Positions 6,700 to 39,301 of a stretch of 64,000 nt of DNA are shown one piece after another. The stretch lies in contig NZ_CP108455.1 in NCBI RefSeq assembly GCF_036241575.1, forward strand, positions 7,299,001 through 7,363,000. The letters run 5' to 3'. A model generated the notes under the pieces. That model had not been told where the DNA came from. It was given only the letters and a program-made list of their open reading frames with translations, and searched no databases. Source of the DNA: Streptomyces sp. NBC_01267 (GTDB lineage: Bacteria > Actinomycetota > Actinomycetes > Streptomycetales > Streptomycetaceae). The first letter of the stretch is position 1. Every line of letters starts with the position of its first letter. Made by a program: the position numbers and the translations under genes.

Positions 6700-6712
6700 G
6701 GTGGGCCCCGGA

Positions 6713-8876: not shown

Positions 8877-9203
8877 ATGCCGCCTGTAGTACCGCCCTTC
8901 CTGGTCGGCCTCATTGTCGCGCCTCTGGCCAAACGCCTGCTCAAGCCACTGGTGGGTGGAGTCGTCAAAGCATCCGTCGGCATCGCGATGGAGGTGAAGA
9001 AGGCGGCTCAGGAGGCCGGGGAGAACATCCACGACCTCGCGGCCGAAGTGGCTGCCGATGTGGTGGCCGCCCAGATCGCCGCCGCGGAAACCGAAGGTCA
9101 CTCCGGTGACGGTCAGCACACCACCGGAAACGGCGGCAAGGGGGAACCGAGGATCCCGAAGATCCGCGCGACCACCGGTAGTTCCTCCGGAAAGACGCCC
9201 TGA
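8877..9203 (+). CDS. Small DUF5132-like protein
   Basis: A 108-residue protein. An N-terminal hydrophobic segment (PPFLVGLIVAPLAKRLLKPLVGGVVKA) is followed by a charged amphipathic helix (MEVKKAAQEAGENIHDLAAEVAADVV) and a Gly/Thr-rich tail. This layout matches what I recall of DUF5132 proteins, which often accompany HMA-domain metal ATPases. Here the neighbour is an ABC exporter whose N-terminus looks HMA-like. The start is ATG 8877 with GGATGGAG about 6-9 nt upstream. Its function is unknown; a membrane-anchored accessory of the exporter is the best guess. Confidence 0.6.
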   Translation: MPPVVPPFLVGLIVAPLAKRLLKPLVGGVVKASVGIAMEVKKAAQEAGENIHDLAAEVAADVVAAQIAAAETEGHSGDGQHTTGNGGKGEPRIPKIRATTGSSSGKTP

Positions 9204-9394
9204 CGGTCCGTAAGGACTCACGGCCGCCGCCAGGCGCGTATGCCGATAGATTTCGGCGGAATGCGTCCGGGTGGCGGCCGTTCGCAGGCCGTTCGGCCGC
9301 AGAGATTTGCTGTCCAGAATTTCCCGCTCCGTCGCCGTAATCCGTCGTGTCCGTGGCGGTTTTCCGCGACCTCCGCAAACAGGTGAACGTACAC

Positions 9395-11793: not shown

Positions 11794-14700
11794 ATGTCCC
11801 GTCGCGACGGAGACGTCCTTCCCCTGACCGCGGCCCAGCGGGAGATCTGGCTCGCCGAGCAGCGCTCCCGGACACCGATCCCGGGCTACCGCGTCGGTGA
11901 ATGCCTGGAGATCCACGGGCCGGTCGACCCGGAGCTGTTCGAAGCCGCGCTGCGCCGAGTGGTCGACGAGGTCGACGCCCTGCACGTGACCTTCGTCGAC
12001 GACGGTGAAGGCCCGCGTCAGATCCTCCGCGAGACCTGGGACTGGGCGCCCGTCCACCTCGACCTCGGCACGGAGCCAGATCCCCGGGCGGCGGCCATGG
12101 ACTGGATGGAGCGGGACCTGGCCCGTCCGCTGGACCTCTCCCGTGATCCGCTGTTCGGCCATGCGCTGATCCGGCTGTCGCCGACGGAGTTCCTCTGGTA
12201 CCTGAACTACCACCACGTGGTGCTGGACGCGATCAGCAGCTCCATGGTCCGGCAGCGGGTCGGCGAGGTGTACTCGGCACTGGCCGGGAGCGGTGCCGTT
12301 CCGCCGTCTCCGTTCGGCTCGCTACGGGACCTGGTCGACAGCGACGCCGCCTATCGCTCGTCCGCCGACTTCAGCGCCGACCGCTCCTACTGGACCGAGC
12401 GCTTCGCCGATCTGCCCGCCCCGACACGGCTCACCGACACCGCCGCGACCGACCCGCACCAGGCCCTGCGCGTGGCCGGGGAGCTGGAGCTGCGGAACCC
12501 CGAGGCACTGCGAGCGGCGGCGGGCCGGGCCGGTGTCAGGTGGTCCCGGGTGGTGGTCGCGGCGACGGCGCTCTACGCCCACCGTCTGAGCGGCGCCCAG
12601 GACGTGGTGCTCGCCCTCCCCGTCACCGCCCGTCGGGGCTCCGACCGCGACCTGATGTCGGTGCCCGGCACGATGTCCAACGTCGTGCCCCTGCGGCTGA
12701 CCGTGCGACCGGACATGCCGTGGGGCGATCTCGTCGCCCAGGTGGCGCGGGAGGTCGAGTCGGCCGTCGCGCACGAGCGCTACCGCAGCGAGGACCTGCT
12801 GCGCGACCTCGGCGCGCCCGGCAGCATCGGAACGGCGTTCCCGCTGATCATCAACATTATGGCCTTCAACGCCAGGCCTAGTTTCGCCGGGCACCCTGCC
12901 TCGGTTCACCACTTCGTGTCGGGGTCGACCACCGACCTGGCCGTCTGGCTCTTCGACTACCGGGACGGCAACCCCCCGCTTCTCCGGCTGCACGGCGCGC
13001 CGGAGGCGTACGGCGACGACGACCTCGCCGCGCACCAGCAGCGGCTGCTCGCCCTTCTCGACGCCGTCGCGGACTGCGACCCGGACGAAGCGGTTGGCCG
13101 GATCGACCTGCTCACCGCCGAGGAGCACCGCGAGGTGGCGGCCCTCGGCACCGGGCCGGTGGCCGAGGCCCCCACCGCGAGCCTGCCGGAGCTGTTCCGG
13201 GAGCACGTCCGGGCGACTCCGGACCTCGTCGCGCTGGTGTGCGGTGACGTGTCGCTGACGTATGCGGAGTTGGACGTGCGGGCGAACCGGTTGGCGCATG
13301 CGCTGATCGCGCGGGGTGCTGGGCCGGAGCGGTTGGTGGCGGTGTCGCTGCCGAGGTCGGCCGAGCTGGTGGTGGCGATCCTTGCGGTGTTGAAGACCGG
13401 CGCGGCGTACGTTCCGGTCGACCCCGATTATCCGGCGGCCCGGGTCGCGTATCTGCTCGACGACGCCCGCCCGGTCCTGACGGTGACCGACACCCGCACC
13501 CTGGGGCGGCTGCCCGACGGCGTCACTGCCCGGCTGGTGCTCGACGAGCCGGAGACGGCCGCTCTGGTGGCAGGCTGCCCGGCGGTCGATCCGGGGGTGG
13601 CCGTCGATCCGGGGCACCCGGCGTACGTGATCTACACCTCGGGTTCCACCGGCAGGCCCAAGGGTGTGGTGGCAAGGCACGGCGGCCTGCTCGACCTGCT
13701 CACCGACCACCGGCTGGTGCAGTTCGCACCGCTGCTGGTGGACCGGCGGCGGCTGCGGGTGGCGCTGACCACATCGGTGTCGTTCGACGCCTCCTGGAAC
13801 CAGCTGATGGCCCTCTTCGCGGGCCACGAGCTGCACGTTCTGAACCATGCGACCTGGACCGACCCGGAGGCCTTCGTCGACTACGCGGCGTGCCACGGGC
13901 TGGACTACGTCGAGGCCACCCCTTCCTACCTCCACGTCCTCGTCGCCCATGGACTGCTGGACGATCCGCAGCGCCGTCCCGCGCTGGTCGCGGCGGGCGG
14001 CGAGGCCGTCCCCGAGCAGCTGTGGGAGCGGCTGCGGGCCGCCGACGGGGCCTCCTGCCTCAACCTCTACGGACCCTCGGAGTGCACCGTCAACTCGGTG
14101 GCCGCGCCCACGGCATCGAGCCCGCGCCCGGTCATCGGCCGCCCCGTCACCAACGCCCGGCTGCATGTGCTCGATGCCGCGTTGCAGCCCGTGCCCGCGG
14201 GTGTGCCGGGTGAGTTGTACATCGCTGGTGCGGGGTTGGCGCGGGGGTATCTGAACCGGCCGGGTCTGACCGCGGGGCGGTTCGTGGCAGATCCGTTCGG
14301 TGCGGGCGGGTCGCGGATGTACCGCACGGGTGACCTGGTGCGATGGAACCCGGACGGGAACCTGGAGTTCCTCGGCCGCACCGACGACCAGGTCAAGGTC
14401 CGTGGCTTCCGGATCGAACTCGGCGAGATCGAGGCGGTCCTCGCCGAGCACCCGGGGATCGCGCAGGCGGCCGTCACGGTGCGCACCGACGAGGAACCCC
14501 TGCTGGTCGCCTACGTCGTCCCTGCCACGGGGCAGGTCGTCCACACGGACACACTGCGGGCCCGGCTGCGGAAACGGTTGCCCGAATACATGGTGCCGTC
14601 GGCGCTCGTGGTGCTGGACGCACTGCCGCTGACCCCGAACGGCAAGCTCGACCGGCGCGCCCTCCCGGCACCCGAGCGGCAGCCCACCGCACCGGGCCGA

Positions 14701-17700
14701 GCTCCGCGCACCGCGGTCGAGCACCTGCTCTCCGGGCTGTTCGCCGAGGTGCTGGGCCTGCCGCAGGTCGGTGTCGACGACGACTTCTTCGACCTCGGCG
14801 GACACTCCCTGCTGGCCACCCGGCTGATCGCCAGGGCGCGGTCCGTGCTGGGCGTGGAGCTGAGGCTGCGCGAACTGTTCGACGCGCCGACGGTGGCTGA
14901 GCTGGCGAGTGCGGTGGACGTCGCGGGCCGGGCGCGGCCGGCGCTGGGGCGGTGCGAACGGCCCGCGACGGTCCCGCTGTCCTTCGCGCAGCGCCGACTG
15001 TGGTTCCTGCACCGCATGGAGGGTCCGAGTGCCACCTACAACATCCCGCTCGCTCTGCGGCTGTCCGGAAGCCTGGACCAGCGCGCCCTGCAAGCCGCCC
15101 TGTCGGACGTGGTCGAGCGGCACGAGAGCCTGCGCACCGTCTTTCCGGTGGTCGACGGAGTGCCGTGCCAGCGGGTGCTCGACCTCGACGTGGCACGGCC
15201 GCGGCTACGGGTGACCGAGGTCGGTGAGCGCGACCTGCCGGACCGGCTGGCGGAGGCGGCGCGGTACGGCTTCGAGCTCTCCGAGGAATCACCGTTGCGC
15301 GCCGAACTGTTCCGGCTCGGCGCCGAGGAGCACGTACTGCTGCTGGTGGTGCACCACATCGCCGGTGACGGCTGGTCGACGGGCCCGCTCTCGCGGGATC
15401 TGGCGACCGCCTACGCGGCCCGCAGCGAGGGGGCGAAGCCGGAGTGGTCGCCGCTTCCGGTCCAGTACGCCGACTACGCCCTCTGGCAGCAGGAGCTGCT
15501 GGGTGACGGAGCCGACCCGGACAGTCTGCTCAACGGCCAACTCGCGTACTGGCGGGAGCGGCTGGCGGACCTGCCCGACCAGGTCGAGCTGCCCTTCGAC
15601 CGTCCCCGGCCGACGGTGATGTCCTACCGGGGCGCCCACCTTCCGGTGCGCATCGACGCCGAGCTGCACCAGGGCCTGCGCGAACTCGCCCGCGACGGCG
15701 GAGCCAGCCTCTTCATGGTGCTCCAGGCCGGTCTGGCCGCCCTGCTTGGCAAGCTCGGCGCCGGTACCGACGTTCCGATCGGCACCCCGATCGCGGGACG
15801 CACCGACGAGGCCTTGGACGACCTGGTCGGCTTCTTCGTCAACACCCTGGTGCTGCGCACCGACCTGTCCGGCGACCCGTCGTTCACCGAACTGCTGGGC
15901 CGGGTGCGCTCCGACGCGCTGGCCGCGTACGCGCACCAGGAGGTGCCGTTCGAGCACCTCGTGGAGGCGCTGAACCCGACCCGGACGCTCGCACACCACC
16001 CGCTCTTCCAGACCATGCTCACCCTGCAGAACGCCCCGTTCGGCACCTTCGACCTGCCGCGGCTGCGAGTGGCGACCGACCTGGTACCCACCGGAACGGC
16101 CAAGTGCGACCTGACCTTCGTCCTGGCCGAACAGCCCGGCGAGGACGGGTTGTCGGGCGTGGTGGAGTACAGCACCGACCTGTTCGACGCGGCCACCGTC
16201 ACCGAGATCGTCGAACGGTGGCTGCGGCTGCTGCGCTCCGTCGTCGCCCACCCCGGCCGACGGATCGGCCAGGTGGACGTGCTGTCCGCCGACGAGCTCC
16301 GTGCGTTGTTGCCGGCCGGTTCCGACCAGGGCGGGGAGCTGCCGGAGTGCGGCCTGCCCGCGCTGTTCGAGCGGCAGGTGCGGGCGAACCCGGCCGCGAC
16401 CGCCCTCACGGACGGCGAGACCACTCTGACGTACGGCCGGCTGAACGCGCGTGCCAACCGGCTGGCGCACGCCCTGATCGACCGGGGGGTGGGGCCGGAG
16501 CAGTTGGTGGCGCTGGCCCTGCCGCGCTCGGCGGAGCTGGTCGTGGCGGTGCTCGCGGTGCTCAAGGCCGGCGCCGCGTACGTACCGGTGGACCCGGAGT
16601 ACCCGGCCGCCCGGATCGCCTATCTGCTCCAGGACTCCCGGCCCGCGCTGCTCGTGACGACGAGCCGGGCCGACGAGCGGCTGGGGGCGGAGCACGTGGA
16701 CCGGCTGCTGCTGGACACCGTCGACCTGGACGGGCTGCCGGACACGGACCCGGGGGTCGCCGTCGACCCGGGCCAGGCCGCCTATGTCATCCACACCTCC
16801 GGTTCCACCGGCAACCCCAAGGGTGTGGTGGTCCCGCACCGCAACGTGGTGCGCCTGTTCGGCACCACCAGGGATCTGTTCGGGTTCTGCGCCGATGACG
16901 TGTGGACCCTCTTCCATTCCTACGCCTTCGACTTCTCGGTGTGGGAGCTGTGGGGCCCGCTGCTGCACGGCGGCCGCCTGGTGGTCGTGGACCACGAGAC
17001 CAGCCGCTCGCCCGGCCGGTTCCTGGAACTGCTCGCCCACGAGCGGGTGACGGTGCTCAACCAGACGCCCTCCGCCTTCTACCAGCTGATGCAGGCGGAT
17101 GCGGAGGCTCCGGAGACCGGCCGCCGACTCGCCCTGCGCACGGTGGTGTTCGGCGGCGAGGCGCTGGAGCACGCCCGGCTGGCGAGCTGGTATCAGAGGC
17201 ACGCGGAGGACGCGCCGCGGCTGGTCAACATGTACGGCATCACCGAGACCACGGTGCATGTCACGTACGCGGCCCTCGACCGGTCCGGGACCGCCGTCGG
17301 CCAGGTCGGCGCGGCCCTCCCGGACCTGCGGGCGTATGTGCTGGACGGCGGCCTGCGACCGGTGGCCCCGGGCGTGCCCGGCGAGCTGTATGTGGCGGGC
17401 GCGGGCCTGGCGCGCGGCTATTTGAACCGGCCCGGCCTGACCGCCGGGCGGTTCGTGGCGGACCCGTTCGGACCACCGGGATCGCGGATGTACCGCAGCG
17501 GCGACGTGGTGCGCCGCGCGGCGGACGGCAGCCTGCGCTACGTCGGCCGGGCCGACCAGCAGGTGAAGGTGCGCGGCTTCCGGATCGAGCTCGGCGAGAT
17601 CGAGGCGGCGCTGGCCGCGTACCCCGGGATCGCCCAGGTCGCCGTCCTGGCTCGGCAGGACCGGTCCGACGACACCCGACTGGCCGCGTACCTGGTGCCG

Positions 17701-20700
17701 GCCGCGGGCGCCGCACCACGCTCCGACGACCTGCGGGGGCACCTGCGCGAGCGGTTGCCGGCGTACATGGTGCCGTCGGCGTTCGTCATGCTGGACGCAC
17801 TGCCGCTGACCGTCAACGGAAAGCTGGACCACCGGGCCCTGCCCGCCCCCGACCTCACCCCGGCGGCCACCTGCCGTGCGCCGCGCACCCCGCAGGAGCA
17901 GATCCTCTGCCGGCTGTTCGCAGAGGTCCTGGGTGTGGCGTCGGCCGGCGTCGAGGACGGATTCTTCGAGCTGGGCGGGCACTCGCTGCTCGCCACCCGC
18001 CTGGCCGCCCGGATCCGCGCGACGCTCGGCGTGGAAATGCCGCTGCGCACCCTGTTCGAGGCGCCGACCCCGGCAGGTCTGGCCGCCGCCCTGGCAGCGG
18101 CCAGACCGGCGCAGGCCGCCCTGGCGCGGCGCGAGCGCCCCGAGGTGATCCCGCTGTCGTTCGCGCAGCGGCGGCTGTGGTTCCTGCACCAGCTGGAGGG
18201 TGCAGGCGCGAACTACCACATCTCCCTGGCGTGGCGGCTGTCCGGGGATCTGGACCGGCGGGCCCTGGAGGCCGCTGTGGCCGACGTGATGGCCCGGCAC
18301 GAGAGCCTGCGCACCGTCTTCCCGGCGGTGGACGGAGTGCCGCACCAGCAGGTGCTGGACGTGGATGCAGCCCGCCCGCGGCTGCTCGTGAGCCGGACCA
18401 CCGAGGCCGAGCTGTCCGCTCTGATGGCGGCGGCGAAGGACTGCCGGTTCGACCTGGCGGTCGATGTGCCGCTGCGGGCCGGGCTGTTCGAGCTGGCGCC
18501 GGACGAGCACGTCTTCCAGCTGGTGCTCCACCACATCGCGGGTGACGGCTGGTCGCTGGGCCCGCTCGTGCAGGGACTGACCGCCGCTTACACGGCGCGC
18601 CGCCGCGGCGAGGAGCCGCAGTGGGCTCCCCTGCCCGTCCAGTACGCCGACTACACCCTGTGGCAGCACGAACTGCTTGGCGACTCCACCGACCGGGACA
18701 GCCTGTTCGCCGGACAGGCGGACTACTGGACCCGGCAGCTGGCCGGTCTGCCGGAGCGGATCCAGCTGCCGACCGACCGGCCCCGCCCGGCGGTCGCCTC
18801 GCACCGGGGCGGTTCTGTGCTCGCCGGTCTCGACGCCGAGCTGCACCGCGGTCTTCGCGAGCTCGCCCGTGCGCACGGGACCAGTCTGTTCATGGTGCTC
18901 CAGGCCGGGCTGGCGGCGTTGCTGAGCAAGCTCGGCGCGGGGGACGACATTCCGGTCGGCAGCCCGGTCGCCGGCCGGACCGACCAGGCTCAGGACGAAC
19001 TGGTGGGCTACTTCGTCAACACCCTGGTGTTCCGTACCGACACCTCGGGCGATCCGACGTTCGCCGAGCTGCTGGACCGGGTCCGGGACACCGCGCTGGC
19101 CGGATACGCCCACCAGGACCTGCCGTTCGAATACCTGGTCGAGGTCCTGAACCCGTCCCGGTCGCTGGCGCACCACCCTCTGTTCCAGGTCATGCTGGCG
19201 CTGCAGAACGCACCCCGGGCCGACTTCGCGCCGCCCGAGCTGCGCGTCGGCGAGATGCCGTCGGCGTCGACCACCGCCAAGCTGGACCTGATCTTCACCA
19301 TGTCCGAGCGGCACGCGGAGGACGGCTCCCCGGAGGGCATCGACGGGTCCGTCGAGTACGCCTGCGACCTGTACGACCCGGCCGCCGTCGAGACGATGAT
19401 CGGGCGGTGGGAGCGGCTGCTCCGCGTCGCGGTCGCCGACCCGCGCCGGCGGCTCAGCCGGCTCGACCTGCTCACCGCCGAGGAGCGCGATGAGCTGACG
19501 GCGCTGGCTACCGGTCCGGTGGCCGAGGCCCCCACCGCGAGCCTGCCGGAGCTGTTCCGGACTCAGGTGCGCATGCTTCCCGACGGCCTCGCGCTGGTGT
19601 GCGGTGACGTGTCGCTGACGTACGCGGAGTTGGACGTGCGGGCGAACCGGTTGGCGCATGCGCTGATCGCGCGGGGTGCTGGGCCGGAGCGGTTGGTGGC
19701 GGTGTCGCTGCCGAGGTCGGCCGAGCTGGTGGTGGCGATCCTTGCGGTGTTGAAGACCGGCGCGGCGTACGTTCCGGTCGACCCCGATTATCCGGCGGCC
19801 CGGGTCGCGTATCTGCTCGACGACGCCCGCCCGGTCCTGACGGTGACCGACACCCGCACCCTGGGGCGGCTGCCCGACGGCGTCACTGCCCGGCTGGTGC
19901 TCGACGAGCCGGAGACGGCCGCTCTGGTGGCAGGCTGCCCGGCGGTCGATCCGGGGGTGGCCGTCGATCCGGGTCACCCGGCGTACGTGATCTACACCTC
20001 GGGTTCCACCGGCAGGCCCAAGGGCGTGGTGGCGACGCACGGCGGCCTGGTCAACCTGTTCGCCAACCAGCGTCCGCTGATCTCCCGGCCGGGGGAGCGG
20101 ATGCGGATCGGGCTGACCACCTCCGTGTCCTTCGACGGCTCCTGCGACCAGCTGTTCGCCGTGTTCGCGGGCCACGAGCTGCACGTCCTGGACGAGGCGA
20201 CCTGGTCCGACCCGGAGGCCTACCTCGAGTACGCCGTGCGGGCCGGGCTGGACACTGTCGGCGGCACCGCGTCCTACCTCCAGGTCCTGGTCGAACACGG
20301 TCTGCTGGACGACCCGCGGTGGCGTCCTTCGGTGGTCGCGCTGGGCGGGGAGACCGTTCCGGAGCAGCTGTGGGAGCGGCTGCGGGCGGCCGACGGGGTG
20401 CTCGCCCTGAACTACTACGGGCCCTCCGAGTGCACGGTGGACTCGGTCGTCGCGCACCTGAAGTCGAGTCCGTGCCAAGTGATCGGTCGGCCGCTCGGTG
20501 GTGTCCGGCTGCATGTGCTCGATGCTGCGTTGCAGCCCGTGCCCGCGGGTGTGCCGGGTGAGTTGTACATCGCTGGTGCGGGGTTGGCGCGGGGGTATCT
20601 GAACCGGCCGGGCCTGACTGCGGGACGGTTCGTGGCGGATCCGTTCGGTGCGGGTGGGTCGCGGATGTACCGCACGGGTGACCTGGTGCGATGGAACCCG

Positions 20701-29700: not shown

Positions 29701-32700
29701 GAGACCACGGTGTGCGCGACCATGAGCGACCCGCTGTCCCCGGGGTCCGGTGTGCCGCCGATCGGTCGGCCGATCGCCAACGCCCGGGTGTACGTGTTGG
29801 ACGACCGACTGCAGCCGGTGCCGCCGGGCGTGACGGGGGAGCTGTACGTCGCGGGCGCGGGCCTGGCGCGCGGTTACCTCGACCGGCCTGGCCTGACGGC
29901 GGGGAGATTCGTCGCCTGCCCGTTCGGACCCGGTGAGCGCATGTACCGCACCGGCGACCTGGTGCGGCGTCGGCCCGACGGCGAGCTGGAGTACGTCGGC
30001 CGCGCCGACCAGCAGGTGAAGGTCCGCGGCTTCCGCGTCGAACCCGGCGAGGTCGAGGCCGCCCTGGCCGAACACCCCGCCGTCGCCCGGGCCGCCGTCG
30101 CGGCCCAGGACGACCGGCTCGTCGGCTACGTCGTCCCGCACCAGGACGCGGCCCGGGACAGCGGGCTGGAGGCGGACCACGTGGGCGAGTGGCAGGACAT
30201 CTACGACGACCTGCCCATTGCCCCCGACGAAGCGGCTTTCGGCCACAACTTCGTGGGTTGGAACAGTAGTTACGATGCCGACCGGATTCCCGTCGAGCAG
30301 ATGCGGGAGTGGCGGGACGCCACCGTGGCCCGCATCCTGGCCCTGCGCCCGCGCCGGGTGCTGGAGGTCGGCGTCGGCACCGGTCTGCTGCTCTCACAGA
30401 TCGCACCCCACTGCGAGACCTACTGGGCGACCGACTTCTCCGCCACCGCGATCGACGCCCTGACCGCCCAGGTCGCGCGGGAGGAGCGGCTGACCGGGCG
30501 TCTGGTGCTGCAGACCCGTCCGGCGCACGACACCGACGGGCTGCCGGCCGGGGAGTTCGACACCATCGTGATCAACTCGGTGGTGCAGTACTTCCCGTCC
30601 GCCGACTACCTCGCGGACGTGATCGGGAAACTGATGCGGCTGCTCGCCCCCGGCGGCGCGCTCTTCGTCGGCGACGTCCGCAACCTGCGACTGCTGCGCC
30701 CGCTGGCCACCGCTGTCGAGCTGCACCGGGCCGACGACAGCGCCGACCGCGCGGCCGTGCGCCGTGCGGTGGAGCAGGCTCTCAGGGTGGAGAAGGAACT
30801 CCTGGTCGACCCGGACTTCTTCACCGTCCTGCACGAGCACGGCACGGACATCGGCGCGATGGCCGTTGAGGTCAAGCGCGGCCGTCACCACAACGAACTG
30901 ACCCGCTACCGCTACGACGTGACGCTGCACAAGCCCCCGGTCGCCCGGCAGACCCCGAGCCGGTCCGTCGAGCTGGCATGGGGGCAGCAGATCACCGGTC
31001 TGGCCGGGCTGCGCGAGCTGCTCGACCAGCCACCCGCCGAGGTGCTGCGGATCACCGGGGTGCCGAATCGCCGTGTGGTGGCGGAAGCCGCCCTGGCCCG
31101 GGCGGTACAGGACGAGGACGGGCCGCTCGCGGAACTGCAGGAGCGGTTGCACGCCCCGGCGGAGAGCGACCTCCCCGACCCGGAGGACTTCCACGCCCTC
31201 GGGCGGGAGTTCGGCCGCGTGGTGGCCGTCACCTGGTCGGACACCGCGGCTGACGCCGTGGACGTCGTCCTCGCCGATCCACAGGCTCTCCACGGCTCGC
31301 GGGTCGAGCCGTACCGGCCGGCCGGGGCCACCGGCAGGGCACTTTCCTCGCTGACCAACCGCCCGACCGGCAGCCGTGGCACCGGCGCCCTTCTCGGCGA
31401 ACTCCGCGTCTGGTTGCAAGGGCGGCTGCCCGACTACCTGGTTCCGTCGGCGTTCGTCTCGCTGGACACGCTGCCGCTGACGGCCAGCGGCAAGCTCGAC
31501 CGGCGCGCACTGCCCGCCCCCGATCTCGGCCCGGCCGCTGCCGGACGGGCACCGCGTACCCCACAGGAGCAGCTCCTCGCGGAGCTGTTCGCCGAGGTGC
31601 TCGGGCTGGCACAGGTCGGGGTCGACGACAGCTTCTTCGACCTCGGCGGACACTCGCTGCTGGCGACCCGCCTGGCCTCCAGGGTCCGGGTGACGCTCGG
31701 CGCAGAGCTGGAGGTCCGGACCCTGTTCGAGACCCCGACCGTGGCCGGACTGGCAGCCCACCTGGACGGTTCCGGAGCAGCGCGGCCCGCGCTGACCGCC
31801 CGGCCCCGACCGAAGCGCGTGGAACTGTCCTTCGCCCAGCGGCGTCTGTGGTTCCTGCACCGGATGGACGGGCCGAGCGCCACCTACAACATGCCGCTCG
31901 CGCTGAGCCTGACCGGCGGCCTCGACCGGCCGGCCCTGCACGCCGCGCTCGCGGACGTGATCGCCCGGCACGAGAGCCTGCGGACGGTCTTCCGCGAGAC
32001 CGACGGCGTCCCGTACCAGGTCGTGCTGAGCACCGCGCAGGCACACCCGGCGCTGCCGGTGGTCGAACTCGACGAGAGCCGGCTGGCCGAGCGGCTGGCG
32101 GAAGCGGCCCGGCGCGGCTTCGACCTGGCCGCGGAGCCGCCGATCCGGGCCGAGCTGTACGCTCTCGCCCCCGACCGGCACGTGCTGCTGGTCGTGGTGC
32201 ACCACATCGCCGCCGACGGCTGGTCGATGGGGCCGCTCTCCGGCGGCCTCGCGACGGCCTACGCGGCGCGCTGCCGGGGCGAGGAGCCGCAGTGGTCCCC
32301 GTTGCCGGTGCAGTACGCCGACTACACCGGCTGGCAACGCGACCTGCTCGGCGACGCCGCCGATCCCGACAGCCTGTTCGCCCGGCAACTGGCCTACTGG
32401 AAGGACGAGCTGACGGGAATCCCGCAGCAGGTGCAGCTGCCCGCCGACCGGCCCCGGCCGCCGGTGGCCTCCCAGCGGGGCGACCGGGTCGTGGTCCGGC
32501 TGGACCCCGAGCTGCACCAGGCGCTGCGCGACCTGGCCACCGCGCGTGGCACCAGCATGTTCATGGTGCTCCAGGCCGGTCTCGCCGCTCTCCTCACCCG
32601 GCTCGGTGCCGGTACGGACATCCCGATCGGCAGCCCGATCGCCGGCCGTACCGACCAGGCGCTGGACGAGCTCGTCGGTTTCTTCGTCAACACCCTGGTG

Positions 32701-35700
32701 TTGCGCACCGACACCAGCGGCGACCCCGGCTTCACCGAACTGCTCGGCCGGGTGCGGCAGAAGGCGCTCACCGCGTACGACCACCAGGACGTGCCGTTCG
32801 AGTACCTGGTCGAGGTGGCCAACCCGGTGCGGTCGCTGGCCCACCACCCGCTGTTCCAGATCATGCTGGCCCTGCAGAACGCGCCGCTCGGCGAGTTCGC
32901 GTTGCCGGGGCTGGAGACGGGCCACCTGGAGGCGCCGACCGGGACCTCACGGGTCGACCTGACGTTCAGTCTGGCCGAGCAGTTCCGCCCGGACGGCGGC
33001 GCCGACGGCCTGGTCGGCGCGGTGGAGTACGCCACCGACCTGTTCGACGGGTCCACGGTGGAGCTGCTGTTCGAGCGCTGGGCCCGCCTGCTGCGCGCGG
33101 CGGTAGCCGACCCGGACCGGCCGATCAGCCGGATCGACCTCATGTCCGACGCCGAACGCCACCGGCTGCTGCACGGGTTCAACGACACGGCCGTGGAGCT
33201 GCCGTCGGCCTCGGTGCCGGAGCTGTTCGCCCGCCAGGTGCGGGTCGCCCCGGACGCGGTCGCGGTCGTGGCGGGCGGCACCGAGCTGACCTACGCGGAG
33301 CTCGACCTGCGGGCCGACCGCCTGGCGAGGGCGCTGATCCGCCAGGGCGTACGGCCGGAGACCCCGGTCGCGGTCCTGATGGACCGCTCGGCGGAGCTGG
33401 TCGTGGCGATCCTGGCGATCATCAAAGCGGGCGGCGCCTACGTACCGCTGGACTCCCGCTTCCCCTCCTCCCGGATCGACCTGATCCTGCGGGAGAGCGG
33501 AGCCGCCCTGGTGCTCACCCCGGAGGTGTTCGCCGCACTCATGCAGTCCGCGGCCTCCGACCCGTCCGACGTCGGCGTCCCCTGTGAACCGGGGCAGGTG
33601 GCGTACATCATGTACACCTCCGGCTCGACCGGACGGCCGAAGGGCGTGGCCGTCACCCACCGGGACGTGGTGGGCCTGGCGCTGACCCCCGAATGGCGCG
33701 GCGGCGGACATGAGCGGGTGCTGATGCACTCCCCGACGGCCTTCGACCTCTCGACCTACGAGTTGTGGGTTCCGCTGCTCAACGGTGGCCGTGTCGTGGT
33801 CGCACCGCCCGAGCAGCTCGACCTCGACCTGCTTCAGCACACGATCGCCACGCACGGGGTGACCGGTCTGTGGCTGACAGCCGGACTGTTCCGGCTGGTC
33901 GCCGAGGAGCGTCCGGGCCTGCTCACCGGGGTGCGCGAGGTGTGGACCGGCGGCGACGTGGTCTCCCCGGCCGCTGCCGCCCGGGTGCTCACGGCCTGCC
34001 CGGGTATCGAGGTGGTCAACGGGTACGGGCCTACCGAGGCCACCACCCTGGCCACCTGTCACCCGGTGCGCAGCCTCCCCGAGAACGCCGCGACCGTGCC
34101 GATCGGCGGGCCGATGGCGAACATGCGTGCCTACGTGCTCGACGACCGGCTGCGGCCGATGCCGACCGGCATGGTCGGTGAGCTGTACCTCGCGGGGACG
34201 GGTGTGGCCCGAGGCTACTTCGGCCGACCCGGCCTGACAGCGGAGCGCTTCACCGCCGACCCGTACGGGCCGGCCGGGAGCCGTATGTACCGCACCGGCG
34301 ACCTTGCCTGGTGGCTCCCCGACGGCACGCTGGAGTTCGCCGGACGCGTCGACCACCAGGTCAAGCTGCGCGGTCTGCGGATCGAGCCCGGAGAGGTCGA
34401 GGCCGTCCTGGCGGGCTGCCCGGGTGTCGCCCAGGCCGCCGTGGTCGCCCGTGAGGACCGGCCGGGAGACAAGCGGCTGGTCGCCTACCTGGTGCCCGCT
34501 CCCGAGGGTGCACCCGAGATGACCGAGCTGTCCGGCCGACTGCGCCGCGAACTGCCCGACTACATGGTGCCGGCGGCGTTCGTCACCGTGGACGCGCTGC
34601 CGCTGACCGCCAACGGCAAGCTGGACCGAGTCGCCCTGCCCGCCCCCGACTACGGGGCGTCGGATGCCGGGCGCGGCCCCCGGACGCCGCAGGAGCAACT
34701 GCTGTGCGGCCTGTTCGCCGAGGTCCTGGGCCGGGAGCAGGTGAGCATCGACGACGGCTTCTTCGATCTGGGCGGGCACTCGCTGCTGGCCGCCCGGCTG
34801 GCCTCCCGGGTCCGCGAGACCCTCGGCCTGGAGCTGGGACTGCGCCTGCTGTTCGAGGCGCCGACCGTCGCCGGACTCACCGAACACCTGGCCATGAACG
34901 ATCCGGACGACGCGTTGGATGTGCTGCTGCCACTGCGTTCGACCGGGATGGACACACCGCTGTTCTGCGTCCACCCCGGCGGCGGCATCAGCTGGTCGTA
35001 CAGCGGGCTGCTGAACCACCTCGGCCCGCAGCACCCGGTCTATGCGATCCAGGCACGCGGCCTCGGCCGGCCCGAGCCGCTGCCGACGTCCTACGAAGAG
35101 ATGGCGGCCGACTACGCCGACCACGTCCAGAAGATCCAGCCGGAGGGCCCGTACCTGCTGCTCGGCTGGTCCGCGGGTGGCCTGATCGCCCACGCACTGG
35201 CCTGCGAGCTGCAGGCCCGCGGCGAGCGGACCGCACTGCTGGCGATCCTCGACGCCTACCCGGTGAAGGACGTGCGGTTCGAGGAGGAGCCGGTACCCAC
35301 CGTGCGGGACGTGCTCGTCGGGGTGCTCGACGTCGACCCGGACGAGCTGGACGACCAGGAGATCACCTACGCCGAGGTCGCCGAGGTGCTGAACCGGCGG
35401 GGCAGCGCGCTGGCCGGCCTGAACGAGCGGCAGGTCGAGGTGATCGTCCAAATCATGATCAACAACGCGAAGCTGGCGGTCGACTTCGTCCCCGGCAGGT
35501 ACGACGGGGATCTACTGCTGTTCAACTCCACGATCGACCGGGGCCATGACGACGCCGGTCCAGAGGTCTGGCGCCCGTACATCACGGGCCGGATCGAATC
35601 CCACGAGATCACCACCCGGCACGACCAGATGACCCAGGCGGGATCGCTGGCCCAGATCGGGCCGATCCTGGCCGCCAGGATCGCCGAGGCCACCGGTGAC

Positions 35701-35736
35701 TCCGGTGGTACCACCCTTTCCCTTCAGGAGGACTGA
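11794..35736 (+). CDS. Seven-module non-ribosomal peptide synthetase with nMT and terminal thioesterase
   Basis: A 7980-residue NRPS, the core of the cluster. Domain order is [C-A-PCP] x5, C-A(nMT)-PCP, C-A-PCP, TE. Start ATG 11794 has GGAGG 7 nt upstream. All seven carrier domains keep the LGGHS phosphopantetheine serine. Condensation domains 2-7 have HHIxxDG; the first has HHVVLDA and resembles acyl- or aryl-accepting starter domains such as that of EntF. No epimerase domain exists. Manual pocket residues predict X1, Thr, X3, Pro-like, Phe, N-methyl aromatic and Val-like. The TE nucleophile is Ser7793 in GWSAGG, with LDAYP and TRHDQM probably supplying Asp and His. The only TTA codon found (21883-21885, residue 3364) suggests bldA control. 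Thr at position 2 can supply the hydroxyl for macrolactone closure onto the C-terminal residue, giving a depsipeptide with the residue order of cyanopeptolins. mbtH follows after 3 nt. Confidence 0.95.
13230..13664 (+). repeat. A1/A3 shared tract 1 (mate 19590-20024)
   Basis: 435 bp at constant offset 6360 with two differences (13263 and 13614), both third-position. It covers A motifs A1-A3 up to the start of the substrate pocket. Confidence 0.9.
14161..14463 (+). repeat. A1/A3 shared tract 2 (mate 20509-20811)
   Basis: 303 bp at offset 6348 with about seven differences, all synonymous third-position. It covers A7-A9, immediately after the divergent pocket region. Confidence 0.9.
14960..18110 (+). 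other. NRPS module 2: C-A(Thr)-PCP
   Basis: C residues about 1056-1505 (HHIAGDG), A 1518-2022, PCP 2029-2106. Pocket residues D-F-W-N-V-G-M-V-H match the standard threonine code except Val for Ile at position 299, from [18 protein letters not shown] and [11 protein letters not shown]. This residue would provide the ring-closing hydroxyl. Confidence 0.85.
18145..21290 (+). other. NRPS module 3: C-A (unassigned)-PCP
   Basis: C residues about 2118-2567 (HHIAGDG), A 2581-3079, PCP 3088-3166. Pocket residues D-G-D-G-V-L-Y-V-D, not a code I recognise. The A domain is a close relative of module 1 outside the pocket. In a cyanopeptolin-type product this residue would be the P1 side chain that enters the protease pocket. 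Confidence 0.7.
21320..24410 (+). other. NRPS module 4: C-A(Pro-like)-PCP
   Basis: C residues about 3176-3626, A 3641-4122, PCP 4130-4206. Pocket residues D-V-Q-F-A-A-H-V-I, close to actinobacterial proline codes (DVQxxAHV type), with the [16 protein letters not shown] layout of imino-acid-activating domains. The TTA codon of the gene lies in this C domain. Confidence 0.75.
25189..25492 (+). repeat. C5/C6 shared tract (mate 28255-28558)
   Basis: 304 bp identical at offset 3066, in the second half of the condensation domains of modules 5 and 6. Its codon choice is visibly looser (ggt, gat, ttg) than the flanking sequence. Confidence 0.95.
25852..26261 (+). repeat. A5/A6 shared tract 1 (mate 28924-29333)
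   Basis: 410 bp at offset 3072 with three differences, spanning A1-A3 up to the pocket. Confidence 0.95.
26542..26693 (+). repeat. A5/A6 shared tract 2 (mate 29614-29765)
   Basis: 152 bp identical at offset 3072, covering the A5 region [16 protein letters not shown] to [17 protein letters not shown]. Confidence 0.95.
26872..27062 (+). repeat. A5/A6 shared tract 3 (mate 29941-30131)
   Basis: 191 bp at offset 3069 with one difference (cag/cgg), covering A7-A8 up to the point where module 6 diverges into its methyltransferase insertion. Confidence 0.95.
27510..31775 (+). other. NRPS module 6: C-A(aromatic)-nMT-PCP
   Basis: C residues about 5239-5689 (HHIAADG), A 5706-6576 interrupted by an N-methyltransferase domain (about 6126-6536, SAM motif [11 protein letters not shown] near residue 6189, NSVVQYFP), PCP 6584-6661. 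Pocket residues D-A-S-T-V-A-A-V-C differ from module 5 only at position 239 (Ser for Trp), which opens space for a hydroxyl; Tyr or a related aromatic residue is most likely. The residue would be N-methylated. Confidence 0.8.
31810..34900 (+). other. NRPS module 7: C-A(Val-like)-PCP
   Basis: C residues about 6673-7124 (HHIAADG), A 7138-7619, PCP 7628-7703. Pocket residues D-L-Y-W-W-G-G-T-L resemble the DAYWWGGTF valine code; Ile cannot be excluded. Confidence 0.7.
34915..35733 (+). other. NRPS terminal thioesterase
   Basis: Type I TE, residues about 7708-7980: [18 protein letters not shown] opening, nucleophile Ser7793 in LLGWSAGGL, then LAILDAYP and TRHDQMTQ. It should release the chain, most likely by lactonisation onto the Thr side chain. 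Confidence 0.85.
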
Positions 35737-35739
35737 CCC

Positions 35740-35955
35740 ATGACCAACCCCTTCGACGACCAGGACGGCACCTTCCTCGTCCTCGTCAACGACGAGAACC
35801 AGCACTCGCTCTGGCCGCAGTTCGCGGACGTCCCGGCCGGCTGGACCGTCGTCCACGGCCCCGACTCCCACGCCGCCTGCCTGGAACACGTCGAGCAGTC
35901 CTGGACCGACATGCGGCCCAAGAGCCTCGCCGACGCCATGAACGCCCAGCGGTAG
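35740..35955 (+). CDS. MbtH-like protein
   Basis: 71 residues with the full family signature: [19 protein letters not shown], then [17 protein letters not shown]. MbtH proteins bind NRPS adenylation domains and support their folding and activity. It starts 3 nt after the NRPS stop with AGGAGG 8 nt upstream of ATG, so it is co-transcribed and its partner is almost certainly the seven-module NRPS. Confidence 0.97.
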
Positions 35956-35965
35956 CACGGCCGAC

Positions 35966-37213
35966 GTGACCTCCACCGACACACTGGGCGGGGCCCGCGA
36001 AACCGCGGGCCCCGCCCGGCCCGACGACCTCGCCGCAGCCCTGCTCACCCCCGGGGCCCGGCGGGACCCGTACCCGTTCTACGCCCGCATGCGGCGCGAG
36101 GACCCGGTCCACCGCAGTCCCCAGGGCATCTGGTACCTCACCCGGTACGCCGACGTCGAGGCGGCGCTGAGCGACCTGCGGCTGTCCAACGACCGGGACA
36201 GGATGACCCGCGCCTACAGCGCGCTCGGCGGCGACCTCAAAGCCCTCAGCCGGCTCACCGACCGACTCGGCCGGGTGATGACCAACACCGACCCACCGGA
36301 CCACGCCCGGCTGCGCAAACTGGCCAACAGGGCCTTCACCGCCCGGCGGGTCGAGGCCCTGCGCGACGGCGTCCAGCGGATCGTCGACCGCCTCATCGAC
36401 GAGGCGGTCGCGGCCGGGCCGGCCATGGACCTGATCGAGGCGGTCGCCTCCCCGCTGCCGATGTCCGTGGTCTGCGAACTCTTCGGCATTCCGGAAGAGG
36501 ACCGCCCGCAGGTCAAGAGCTGGTTCCGCCGCTTCGGCCGGCTCAGCGAGGACATCGACAAGTCCGAGGCGGCGATCGACCAGTACGAGGAGTACCTGTC
36601 CGGGCTCATCCGGCAGCGCAGGCGCGAACCGGGCGACGACCTGATCAGCGCCCTGGTCGCCACCCAGACACAGGACGACCGGCTCACCGACTCCGAACTG
36701 CTGTCCACCTGCTTCGTCCTGATCACCGCCGGCGACGAGACCACCACCCACCTGATCGGCAACGGCGTGCTGGCCCTGCTGCGCCACCCGGACCAACTGG
36801 CCCGGCTGCGCACGGATCCGGGCCTGATCCGCGGCGCCGTCGAGGAACTGGCCCGCTACGACACGGTGACCCAGGCGATTGTCCGGGTCGTCGCGGAGGA
36901 CCTGGAGATCGGCGGACGGACGCTGCGGGAGGGCGAGCTGGTGTACCTGTTCCTCGGCGCGACCAACCGCGATCCCGAGCGCTTCGAGGACCCTGACCGG
37001 CTCGTCCTGTCCCGCCCCGGCAACCGGCACCTGAGCTTCGGTCACGGTCCGCACTTCTGCCTCGGAGGCCCGCTGGCCAAGCTCCAGGCGGAGGTGGCCG
37101 TCGGCACGCTGGTGCGCAGGCTCCCCGAGCTGCGGCTGGCCGACGGGGCGGCGCTGGACTGGCGGGACAACCCGCTGCAGCGGCGGCTGACCGCCCTCCC
37201 GCTTGCCTACTGA
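35966..37213 (+). CDS. Cytochrome P450, candidate tailoring oxidase of the NRPS product
   Basis: 415 residues, a typical soluble bacterial P450. The I-helix has AGDETTT, the ExxR motif lies in VEELARYD, and the haem loop is FGHGPHFCLGG with the Cys ligand. It oxidises a substrate with O2 using separate ferredoxin partners not seen here. It starts at GTG 35966, 10 nt after mbtH, and no other in-frame start precedes the family N-terminus (RRDPYPFYARMRREDPV). The SD is weak and a 14-bp perfect hairpin lies 20 nt into the gene. Position in the operon makes it a tailoring enzyme. Given a Pro-type module where cyanopeptolins have Ahp, C5 oxidation of prolyl to form Ahp is my leading hypothesis; hydroxylation of an aromatic residue is the alternative. 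Confidence 0.93.
   Translation: MTSTDTLGGARETAGPARPDDLAAALLTPGARRDPYPFYARMRREDPVHRSPQGIWYLTRYADVEAALSDLRLSNDRDRMTRAYSALGGDLKALSRLTDRLGRVMTNTDPPDHARLRKLANRAFTARRVEALRDGVQRIVDRLIDEAVAAGPAMDLIEAVASPLPMSVVCELFGIPEEDRPQVKSWFRRFGRLSEDIDKSEAAIDQYEEYLSGLIRQRRREPGDDLISALVATQTQDDRLTDSELLSTCFVLITAGDETTTHLIGNGVLALLRHPDQLARLRTDPGLIRGAVEELARYDTVTQAIVRVVAEDLEIGGRTLREGELVYLFLGATNRDPERFEDPDRLVLSRPGNRHLSFGHGPHFCLGGPLAKLQAEVAVGTLVRRLPELRLADGAALDWRDNPLQRRLTALPLAY
35986..36017 (+). terminator. Strong hairpin inside the start of the P450 gene
   Basis: GGGCGGGGCCCGCG (35986-35999), loop AAAC, then CGCGGGCCCCGCCC (36004-36017): a perfect 14-bp stem. It lies 31 nt after the mbtH stop and 20 nt into the P450 frame, with no T-run. 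It could act as an attenuator or processing barrier between NRPS-mbtH and P450 expression. Functional effect is inferred. Confidence 0.45.
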
Positions 37214-37243
37214 TACCTGAACGACGACGAAGGAGAACCGACC

Positions 37244-38002
37244 ATGGCCCGAGAGTTCGAGGTCTGCCGGGAGCAGGACCTGCCCGTCCCACCCGCCCAG
37301 GTCTGGGACGCGGTCGCCACCGGCCCCGGCAACCTCGGCTGGCTCTATCCGATGGAGATCGAGCCGCGTGTCGGCGGAAAGGTCACCCGGGGAGACGCCA
37401 CCGTCGTGGCGTGGGAGCCGCCGCACCACTTCGCCGTCCGGGCGACTCAGGAGGGCGGGTTCTCCAACACGCTCAGCTACCGCATCGAGTCGGCCGACGG
37501 CGTCACGAGCCACCTGCGGATGGGAATCCACTGGGTGCACACAGGCATCGTCGACGGCGCCTGGAACTGGGACGCCAAGACGGACGTGGCCGAGAAGTAC
37601 GTCGACTTCCACCAGCACGCCCTCGCCGAGTACCTCCGGCACTTCGCCGGCCGCCCCGCCACGTACGTCAGGTCCCAGCACCCCGAATCCACCGCCGATC
37701 CGGCCGACTTCGCCGCCCTGCGCCGACGCCTCGGTCTCGCCGACGACGCGGCCGTCGGCGACCGGTTCACGCTCCTCGCCCCCGGCCCGGACCGTGACCC
37801 CGTGGAGGTGGTCGTCGACTGGCTCAGCACCGACTTCGTCGGTCTGCGAGGCCCGGACGCCCTGTACCGGTTCTTCAACGGCAGCACCTGGAACGTGCCG
37901 ATCTGGCTCGGCCACCACCTGTTCGCCGGGCACGCCGACGAGCAGCAGGCCACCAAGGAGTGGACCGCCTGGCTCAACGAAACCCAAGCTCAGGAGCTCT
38001 GA
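37244..38002 (+). CDS. SRPBCC/START-like (AHSA1-type) protein
   Basis: 252 residues. The N-terminal half reads like an SRPBCC ligand-binding fold: VCREQDLPVPPAQVWDAVATGPGNLGWLYPMEIEPRVGGKVTRG, then EPPHHFAVRA and the long C-terminal helix WVHTGIVDGAWNWDAKTDVAEKYVDFHQHALAEYLRHFAG. The second half (residues 165-250) may be another, degenerate copy of the fold. Such proteins bind hydrophobic ligands and sometimes catalyse cyclisations or dehydrations. ATG 37244 has GGAG 10 nt upstream; the gene follows P450 by 30 nt and its stop overlaps the next ATG. A role in handling or rearranging the oxidised peptide is plausible but unproven. Confidence 0.75.
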   Translation: MAREFEVCREQDLPVPPAQVWDAVATGPGNLGWLYPMEIEPRVGGKVTRGDATVVAWEPPHHFAVRATQEGGFSNTLSYRIESADGVTSHLRMGIHWVHTGIVDGAWNWDAKTDVAEKYVDFHQHALAEYLRHFAGRPATYVRSQHPESTADPADFAALRRRLGLADDAAVGDRFTLLAPGPDRDPVEVVVDWLSTDFVGLRGPDALYRFFNGSTWNVPIWLGHHLFAGHADEQQATKEWTAWLNETQAQEL

Positions 38003-38202
38003 TGGAAACCTCCACGCAGACACTGCTCTTTGCCGCCGAACTCGTCGAGGAGAACGGCACCTACGCCCTCGTCGTCCAGGACGTGAGGAGGGGTACCGTC
38101 CAGTCCACCCCGGTCCCCAAAGCCATGGTCGACAAGCTCCCGACCTTCCTCTCGGCGCTCACCGCCAGGCTCCACCCGGTGCCGCAGCGCCGCCGCTGGT
38201 AG
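38002..38202 (+). CDS. 66-residue protein translationally coupled to the START-like gene
   Basis: Starts METSTQTLLFAAELVEENGTYALVVQDVRRG and ends RLHPVPQRRRW. The ATG overlaps the preceding TGA by 1 nt (TGATG), the classic coupling arrangement, with GGAGCTC just upstream. I do not recognise the family. It has no signal peptide or membrane segment and a basic tail. It is the last gene of the NRPS operon. Confidence 0.7.
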   Translation: METSTQTLLFAAELVEENGTYALVVQDVRRGTVQSTPVPKAMVDKLPTFLSALTARLHPVPQRRRW

Positions 38203-39291: not shown

Positions 39292-39301
39292 CATCGCGGT
39301 C

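What the first reader, a model, noticed from the sequence alone, without database searches (positions are those of the whole stretch)
11794..38202. Predicted product has the residue order of an Ahp-cyclodepsipeptide (cyanopeptolin-type protease inhibitor)
Seen: seven modules reading X1-Thr-X3-Pro-like-Phe-(N-methyl aromatic)-Val-like, a macrocyclising-type TE, no epimerase, and a P450 in the same operon. Known: cyanopeptolins have the order exocyclic residue-Thr-P1 residue-Ahp-hydrophobic residue-N-methyl aromatic-Val/Ile, all L, closed by an ester to the Thr hydroxyl; they inhibit S1 serine proteases, and one Streptomyces example (streptopeptolin) has been reported as far as I recall. Inferred: the Pro-like residue is converted to Ahp after loading. 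Every module position matches if that holds. The unassigned P1 residue and the acyl cap would make it a distinct member.
Basis: partly seen in the sequence, partly recalled or inferred. Interest (0 to 1): 0.92.

Follow-up and report, generated by a model that had tools for sequence, protein, structure and literature searches.

The report
Streptomyces cluster for a protease-inhibitor peptide
This stretch of a Streptomyces genome most likely encodes the assembly line for a ring-shaped peptide that blocks digestive-type proteases, a relative of the known compound streptopeptolin, and comparing it with its kin shows which part of the peptide evolution keeps swapping.

Summary
In detail: a 7-module NRPS (11794-35736) reading X1-Thr-X3-Pro-Phe-(N-methyl Tyr-like)-Val-like, with a TE and no epimerase, followed by MbtH, a P450, an SRPBCC protein and a 66-aa ORF. 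The Ahp-cyclodepsipeptide reading is well supported by new evidence. (1) Of 52 named loci found with the P450, 47 (52-100% identity) all carry MbtH and SRPBCC beside it. In the 30 clusters whose modules I read, Thr, Pro, methylated aromatic and TE stay fixed wherever visible, while module 3 (P1) varies. (2) S. olivochromogenes, the streptopeptolin species, has an orthologous cluster. (3) The P450 groups with one from Chondromyces crocatus, the crocapeptin producer, whose Ahp is reported (title seen only) to need a P450 plus helper. X1, P1 and the acyl cap remain unassigned; no product, Ahp or inhibition is shown. Verdict: new member of a known kind. Newer points: the family's breadth (including a gammaproteobacterial MAG), a two-domain SRPBCC partner resembling aromatase/cyclases, and P1 rather than ring position 4 as the swapped position, the reverse of the published cyanobacterial pattern.

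The parts
3075..8296 (-). Four-gene oligopeptide (Opp/Dpp-type) ABC importer: ATPase 3075-3866, permease-ATPase fusion 3863-5695, permease 5731-6699, binding protein 6713-8296; travels with the cluster in relatives
   Evidence: Pfam; relatives of the four genes in 12, 12, 10 and 11 of 64 relative loci searched (loci overlap in part and many do not reach that far)
8877..9203 (+). DUF5132 protein, role unknown, conserved near the cluster
   Evidence: Pfam PF17195; matches in 14 of 64 loci
9347..11689 (+). ABC exporter (membrane + ATPase), probable peptide export
   Evidence: Pfam; relatives beside the NRPS in 8 of 10 Streptomyces clusters and 25 of 30 in the larger set, window included (one of the 25 covers only 22% of it, and three of the 5 misses are clusters cut at their 5' end)
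11794..35736 (+). Seven-module NRPS, C-A-T x7 with an MT in module 6 and a TE at the end
11794..13300 (+). First C domain, divergent (24-30% identity to C2-C7, which share 61-71%); read as an acylating starter C (approximate end)
   Evidence: subtype is inference
19603..21213 (+). Module 3 A domain, P1 position, code DGDGAGYVD, substrate unassigned; the variable position of the family
22726..24336 (+). Module 4 A domain, Pro-type code DVQFAAHVI, proposed precursor of Ahp
   Evidence: Pro reading recalled
30214..31323 (+). N-methyltransferase domain in module 6 (approximate limits)
   Evidence: Pfam; in the penultimate module of 30 of 30 clusters
34954..35733 (+). Thioesterase domain (approximate limits)
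   Evidence: Pfam; 30 of 30 clusters
35740..35955 (+). MbtH-like protein
   Evidence: Pfam PF03621; present in 47 of 47 loci with P450 identity 52% or more
35966..37213 (+). Cytochrome P450, proposed proline C5 (delta-carbon) hydroxylase starting Ahp formation
   Evidence: Pfam; groups with Chondromyces P450s
37244..38002 (+). Two-domain SRPBCC protein, proposed helper/cyclase of Ahp formation
   Evidence: present in 47 of 47 loci with P450 identity 52% or more; BGC-type group; AF2 model and Foldseek hits to di-domain aromatase/cyclases
38002..38202 (+). 66-aa conserved small ORF, no family
   Evidence: relatives in 42 of the same 47 loci; no Pfam or NCBIfam match

Best explanation
This is the gene cluster for a streptopeptolin-type Ahp-cyclodepsipeptide. 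A divergent first C domain acylates residue 1, and seven modules build acyl-X1-Thr-P1-Pro-Phe-NMe-Tyr-Val, all L. The P450 oxidises C5 of the prolyl residue. The 5-hydroxyproline opens to a glutamate semialdehyde, and the amide nitrogen of the following Phe closes on it to give Ahp. The adjacent SRPBCC protein assists, probably by holding or cyclising the intermediate. The TE closes the ring between the Val carboxyl and the Thr hydroxyl, and the ABC exporter secretes the product. The product inhibits an S1-family serine protease through the residue of module 3. Shown: the genes, module order, pocket codes, relatedness and linkage. Inferred: every chemical step, the role of the SRPBCC protein, export, and the inhibition.
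For: Module order and codes. Thr-type code in 28 of 28 clusters where that module is readable; Pro-type code in 30 of 30; aromatic code with MT next to last in 30 of 30; Val/Ile-type last code in 29 of 30. Of 52 loci from the P450 scan, 47 have P450 at 52-100% identity and all 47 carry MbtH and SRPBCC; the other 5 (35-38%) show neither. P450s of the window and the other 29 clusters, C. crocatus and C. apiculatus lie on one side of a branch from 14 other P450s (94/89 support; 99% of 200 bootstrap trees). BGC-type SRPBCC proteins, C. apiculatus included (34 rows), split from 13 Streptomyces paralogs with 100/100 support. In C. apiculatus the P450 and the SRPBCC protein are each listed on one contig of 33,286 bases, so presumably the same one. 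C. crocatus makes crocapeptins (PMC6680616); their Ahp is formed by 'P450 plus helper protein' (title of Viehrig 2013, in the reference list of PMC10608790). Streptopeptolins contain Ahp and N-methyl-Tyr (PMC9966715), and S. olivochromogenes has this cluster.
Against: No product or Ahp is shown. The crocapeptin and streptopeptolin papers were not held, so that P0221 is the crocapeptin P450 is inference. No C. crocatus SRPBCC appears among the 120 listed of 315 hits, although C. apiculatus ranks fifth; the published 'helper' may therefore be another protein, possibly an MbtH. The published cyanobacterial Ahp module has a quite different code (DVENAGVVTK), so Pro need not be the only precursor of Ahp. 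The Pro, Tyr and Val code readings are recalled. Module 7 of the Actinosynnema relative does not fit (DLYVIAAVY). The S. olivochromogenes genome is DSM 40451, while the producer is strain NBRC 3561.
Confidence: 0.88

Rival explanations
1. A heptadepsipeptide of the same order in which proline stays unmodified; the P450 acts elsewhere, for example on an aromatic ring or the acyl cap, and the SRPBCC protein is a general chaperone.
For: P450 function cannot be read from sequence: its named NCBIfam matches are below the curated cut-offs and its PDB matches are mostly macrolide-type and other tailoring P450s. SRPBCC paralogs at 45% identity or less occur in many Streptomyces genomes; in 13 of 13 such loci tested no P450, MbtH, exporter or 66-aa relative lies within the 1.5 kb or less held on each side.
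Against: In all 30 clusters read, the P450 accompanies a Pro-type module; it groups with a P450 of a crocapeptin-producing species; an Ahp peptide is known from S. olivochromogenes, which has this cluster.
Confidence: 0.07
2. The P450 hydroxylates proline but at C3 or C4, giving a hydroxyproline-containing depsipeptide rather than Ahp.
For: Pro hydroxylation without ring opening is chemically possible; regioselectivity was not tested here.
Against: Same relatedness and species-level link to Ahp peptides.
Confidence: 0.03
3. The cluster is degenerate or silent and makes no complete product.
For: No expression data. Near-identical DNA tracts between modules 1/3 and 5/6 invite recombination or assembly error. 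In two relatives, G166 and G171, the NRPS modules fall in more than one reading frame of the assembly.
Against: The 24-kb frame is intact in the window, and the accessory genes are kept at 85-100% identity in the close relative G166.
Confidence: 0.02

Closest known systems
Streptopeptolin (S. olivochromogenes NBRC 3561; Kodani 2018, paper not held)
   Same: Ahp and N-methyl-Tyr reported (PMC9966715 passage). The S. olivochromogenes DSM 40451 cluster has the same gene set (P450 88%, SRPBCC 80%) and the same codes for M2, M4, M5, M6 and M7.
   Different: P1 module code DADGGGYVD there against DGDGAGYVD here (2 of 9 positions); M1 DANEGGLVN against DANEAGLVN. Whether P1 differs chemically is unknown.
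Crocapeptin (Chondromyces crocatus; Viehrig 2013, title seen only)
   Same: A C. crocatus P450 is 50% identical and groups with ours; a P450-plus-helper route to Ahp is published.
   Different: Different phylum; the C. crocatus helper and NRPS were not seen here.
Cyanopeptolins (oci, mcn, apd clusters of cyanobacteria)
   Same: For oci: seven modules, Thr at module 2, MT at module 6, TE, and Ahp between P1 and a hydrophobic residue (PMC2533009 passages).
   Different: Ahp module code DVENAGVVTK, not Pro type; 'P450' and 'oxygenase' occur nowhere in that paper's main text. P1 there changes mainly by point mutation (PMC8097286 passages); here by core swaps.

Membership tests
Ahp-cyclodepsipeptides | Residue order X-Thr-P1-(Ahp precursor)-hydrophobic-N-Me aromatic-Val/Ile/Leu | tested here: met
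   codes; MT in module 6; Pro/Tyr/Val readings recalled
Ahp-cyclodepsipeptides | Ahp residue in the product | not testable with these tools
   P450 groups with one from an Ahp-peptide producer; product unseen
Ahp-cyclodepsipeptides | All-L backbone (no epimerase) | tested here: met
   7 C domains for 7 modules, none extra; not a strict criterion, since one published cyanobacterial member has an E domain
Ahp-cyclodepsipeptides | Lactone between the C-terminus and the Thr hydroxyl | tested here: inconclusive
   TE and Thr module present; ring closure not shown
Ahp-cyclodepsipeptides | Inhibition of S1 serine proteases | not testable with these tools
   no assay
Streptopeptolin-type (actinobacterial) clusters | Orthologous gene set present in S. 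olivochromogenes | tested here: met
   (DSM 40451, not the producer strain)
Streptopeptolin-type (actinobacterial) clusters | Same P1 pocket as S. olivochromogenes | tested here: not met
   DGDGAGYVD vs DADGGGYVD, 7 of 9 identical; so a congener, not shown to be streptopeptolin itself
P450-plus-helper Ahp pathway (crocapeptin) | P450 orthologous to the crocapeptin P450 | tested here: inconclusive
   same group as the C. crocatus P450 P0221; that P0221 is the crocapeptin enzyme was not verified
P450-plus-helper Ahp pathway (crocapeptin) | Orthologous helper protein | tested here: inconclusive
   SRPBCC 46% identical in C. apiculatus, none listed for C. crocatus (120 of 315 listed); the helper's identity in print not seen

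The most novel reading that the evidence does not exclude
Actinobacteria, Polyangiales and a methanotroph share one proline-based route to Ahp, different from the cyanobacterial one. In it a two-domain SRPBCC protein with an aromatase/cyclase-like fold is a dedicated cyclase that turns 5-hydroxyprolyl into Ahp. In this lineage the protease-specifying P1 position diversifies by swapping A-domain cores, including copying module 1's core into module 3, while ring position 4 stays nearly fixed: the reverse of cyanobacteria.
Probability: 0.35. Interest if true: 0.62.

Novelty: new member of a known kind. Interest (0 to 1): 0.45.

Why it matters
Ahp-cyclodepsipeptides are potent serine protease inhibitors with a variable P1 residue. 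Dozens of Streptomyces and Kitasatospora clusters with different P1 pockets give a ready panel for new inhibitors and natural examples of P1 swaps. The closely linked P450-SRPBCC pair makes the formation of the defining Ahp ring directly testable in genetically tractable hosts, and a seemingly different precursor for the same ring in cyanobacteria poses a clean question of convergence.

Tried and rejected
Assigning X1 and P1: the codes DANEAGLVN and DGDGAGYVD match no code I can recall with confidence. PDB comparison of the module 3 A domain returned the usual NRPS structures (linear gramicidin synthase first) and did not settle a substrate; the same for module 4. I left X1 and P1 open.

Acyl cap: none of the genes called in 8.8-38.2 kb looks like an acyl-CoA ligase, so the cap is unassigned. 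The PanD-like and Asp/Glu racemase-like genes at 38821-39919 gave no match over 40% identity and 50% coverage in the 64 relative loci, so I left them out of the cluster.

Promoter and terminator scans found nothing clearly above chance. A phylum-wide even draw found the P450 in 1 of 396 genomes, the window's own (E <= 1e-115); not used further. The crude tblastn count of C domains (3-8 hits per cluster, 6 for the window) merges and splits hits and was not used; the absence of an epimerase is claimed for the window only.

The first SRPBCC tree was wrong: six of 13 paralogs were translated on the wrong strand. I discarded it, corrected the strand (one search stopped at a label error) and report.

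I corrected the exporter count (25, not 26, of 30), the description of the DNA identity tracts, the wording on the Chondromyces contig, and the identity range for G166, and I added the broken frames of G166 and G171, the low Foldseek TM-scores and the limits of the paper listings.

Full report
OBSERVATION. The window holds one very long frame on the + strand, 11764/11794 to 35736. The start at 11794 follows a GGAGG sequence and is the better choice. Pfam gives 7 condensation, 7 adenylation and 7 carrier stretches, methyltransferase matches at one place and one thioesterase; motif positions give seven C-A-T modules with the methyltransferase inside module 6. No extra C-like domain is left to be an epimerase. 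Pocket codes are M1 DANEAGLVN, M2 DFWNVGMVH, M3 DGDGAGYVD, M4 DVQFAAHVI, M5 DAWTVAAVC, M6 DASTVAAVC, M7 DLYWWGGTL. The Thr and Phe readings can be checked against a published cyanopeptolin table (PMC2533009, passages); Pro, Tyr and Val are recalled code readings. Downstream lie MbtH, a P450, an SRPBCC protein and a 66-aa ORF.

THE FAMILY. The window lies in a genome of 8.07 Mb; a named record, Streptomyces sp. A 4/2, has the identical P450. Among 199 genomes of the same genus, 65 match the SRPBCC protein, but identities fall in two groups: 10 genomes, the own one included, at 56-100%, and the rest at 45% or less. All 10 have P450, MbtH, SRPBCC and the 66-aa ORF behind an NRPS. A scan of named genome contigs with the P450 alignment gave 52 loci: 47 with P450 identity 52-100%, all 47 with MbtH and SRPBCC beside it, and 5 at 35-38% with neither. 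Some of the 47 are the same clusters as. They include S. olivochromogenes DSM 40451, Kitasatospora species, Actinosynnema pretiosum, a Pseudonocardiales MAG and the MAG of Candidatus Methylumidiphilus alinenensis. In 28 genomes behind 29 chosen loci, 25 hold a cluster-type P450 (27 places, 53% or more); all other matches at E <= 1e-80 are at 48% or less.

MODULE CODES ACROSS THE FAMILY. I read 30 clusters (20 named, 9 under genome handles without names, and the window). Two give only modules 4-7 and one only 2-7, because contigs end. A Thr-type code stands at module 2 in 28 of 28 (third module in the eight-module Methylumidiphilus cluster), a Pro-type code two modules on in 30 of 30, an aromatic code with a methyltransferase next to last in 30 of 30, a Val/Ile-type code last in 29 of 30 (Actinosynnema is the exception), and a TE in 30 of 30. 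Module 3, which sets the P1 residue, has 13 different codes in the 26 complete seven-module clusters; modules 1, 2, 4, 5, 6 and 7 have 7, 2, 4, 4, 2 and 6. A fixed ring with a variable P1 fits the Ahp-cyclodepsipeptides as described in PMC8097286 and PMC10608790 (passages).

P1 EVOLVES BY CORE SWAPS. Over those 26 clusters the module 3 A core has a mean pairwise identity of 55.7% (lowest 23.7%), although the C domain in front of it has 78.3% (lowest 61.9%). For modules 2 and 4-7 the core means (81-87%) exceed those of their C domains (77-80%); module 1 has 69.5% and 70.1%. In one relative (G155) the module 3 core is 97% identical to its own module 1 core. In the window, A domains 1 and 3 share DNA tracts of 100% identity before and 94-99% after a divergent core; A domains 5 and 6 do likewise (98-100% before, up to 100% after and also at the end of the core). 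With P1 codes sorted by me into five classes, a P450 tree of 28 clusters needs 8 changes of class. Baunach et al. (PMC8097286, passages and outline) report for cyanobacteria that ring position 4 is the recombination hotspot while position 2 (P1) changes mostly by point mutation. Here position 4 (module 5) is nearly fixed (one code in 23 of 26) and position 2 is swapped. The clusters are not independent samples, close relatives weigh on the counts, and no formal recombination test was run; the differences within the ..GYVD class may well be point mutations.

THE AHP STEP. The P450 is 50% identical to a Chondromyces crocatus P450 (P0221) and 52% to one of C. apiculatus (P0220). On a tree with 14 other P450s these and all 30 cluster P450s fall on one side of a branch (94/89; 99% of 200 bootstrap trees). 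C. crocatus makes crocapeptins (PMC6680616 passage), whose Ahp is formed by 'P450 plus helper protein' according to the title of Viehrig et al. 2013, which I saw only in a reference list. The SRPBCC protein has a C. apiculatus homologue at 46%. It and the C. apiculatus P450 are each listed on one contig of 33,286 bases, so the two are probably neighbours. BGC-type SRPBCC proteins (34 rows) separate from 13 Streptomyces paralogs at 100/100; L13, N30, R49, H96 and L226 are kept in all or all but one of the 34 and absent in the 13. The AlphaFold model is confident (mean pLDDT 91). The first three PDB matches are the di-domain aromatase/cyclases BexL and StfQ and DynU16 of the dynemicin locus (E 6e-10 to 8e-8), but with low whole-chain TM-scores (0.34-0.43 on the query) and many single-domain SRPBCC proteins close behind. 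I propose that it cyclises or holds the oxidised prolyl intermediate. Against this, no C. crocatus SRPBCC is among the 120 listed of 315 hits, so the published helper could be something else.

TWO ROUTES TO AHP. The cyanobacterial oci Ahp module carries DVENAGVVTK, and the main text of that paper does not contain 'P450' or 'oxygenase'. The clusters read here all carry a Pro-type code plus the P450. This suggests different precursors for the same residue. It is an inference from codes; [quoted passage not shown]

STARTER AND SURROUNDINGS. C1 is only 24-30% identical to C2-C7, which share 61-71%, as expected of an acylating starter C; the acyl group is unknown. An ABC exporter precedes the NRPS. 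A four-gene oligopeptide importer (3075-8296, minus strand) lies beside the cluster in some relatives too, upstream in a few and downstream in others, S. olivochromogenes among the latter.

WHAT IS KNOWN. Streptopeptolins from S. olivochromogenes NBRC 3561 contain Ahp and N-methyl-Tyr and inhibit chymotrypsin (PMC9966715 passage). The S. olivochromogenes DSM 40451 cluster differs from the window in the module 3 and module 1 codes only (2 and 1 of 9 positions). The window is therefore a congener cluster of a known Streptomyces compound class. For actinobacterial Ahp clusters in print I ran the searches. None of the titles and abstract starts listed there describes the spread of this family or its P1 swapping; some listings were capped (40 of 258, 20 of 21), and subscription papers are not in that library. 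Papers were seen as passages only, apart from the abstract and outline of PMC8097286.

VERDICT. Ahp-cyclodepsipeptide cluster, 0.88. New member of a known kind. The comparative points are the part a specialist would find new: one P450-SRPBCC pair in Actinomycetota, Chondromyces and a Methylumidiphilus MAG (the Pro code read in the first and last only), and P1 as the swapped module.

Noticed in passing
window 3075-8296 (-): An Opp/Dpp-type oligopeptide ABC importer accompanies the cluster in some relatives, upstream in a few and downstream in others, suggesting a functional link (uptake or self-sensing of peptides).
   Followed up: partly
window 38002-38202 (+): A 66-aa ORF overlapping the SRPBCC stop codon has relatives in 42 of 47 loci, with no family match; function unknown.
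   Followed up: partly
window, A domains of modules 1/3 and 5/6: Pairs of A domains share tracts of about 94-100% DNA identity on both sides of a divergent substrate core, a sign of recent gene conversion or an assembly risk.
   Followed up: partly
L031-L032 (G166) and L035-L036 (G171): The NRPS modules of these two relatives lie in two and three overlapping reading frames of the assembly: frameshift or sequencing error, not examined.
   Followed up: no
L090; L102-L103: The Candidatus Methylumidiphilus alinenensis MAG carries an eight-module version (two modules before Thr, with Asn- and Gln-like codes by recall) with SRPBCC before MbtH and P450, and a separate methyltransferase-like ORF after them: an Ahp-type cluster in a methanotroph lineage.
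   Followed up: partly
L073 and L086; L074 and L079: Streptomyces sp. MJM8645 and CB01373 each carry two such clusters with different P1 codes (DFWNVGMVH and DADGGGYVD; DADGGGYVD and DASTIGVVV).
   Followed up: no
L044, L046, L104, L114, L122, L130: Six clusters have a Thr-type code at P1. In some cyanobacterial inhibitors this place is dehydrobutyrine (Abu), which could derive from Thr (recalled idea), so these may be Abu-type inhibitors; two of them (G014, G062) carry a second P450 downstream.
   Followed up: no
window 38821-39919 (+): A PanD-like aspartate decarboxylase and an Asp/Glu racemase-family gene follow the cluster; no match over the cut-off in the relative loci searched.
   Followed up: partly
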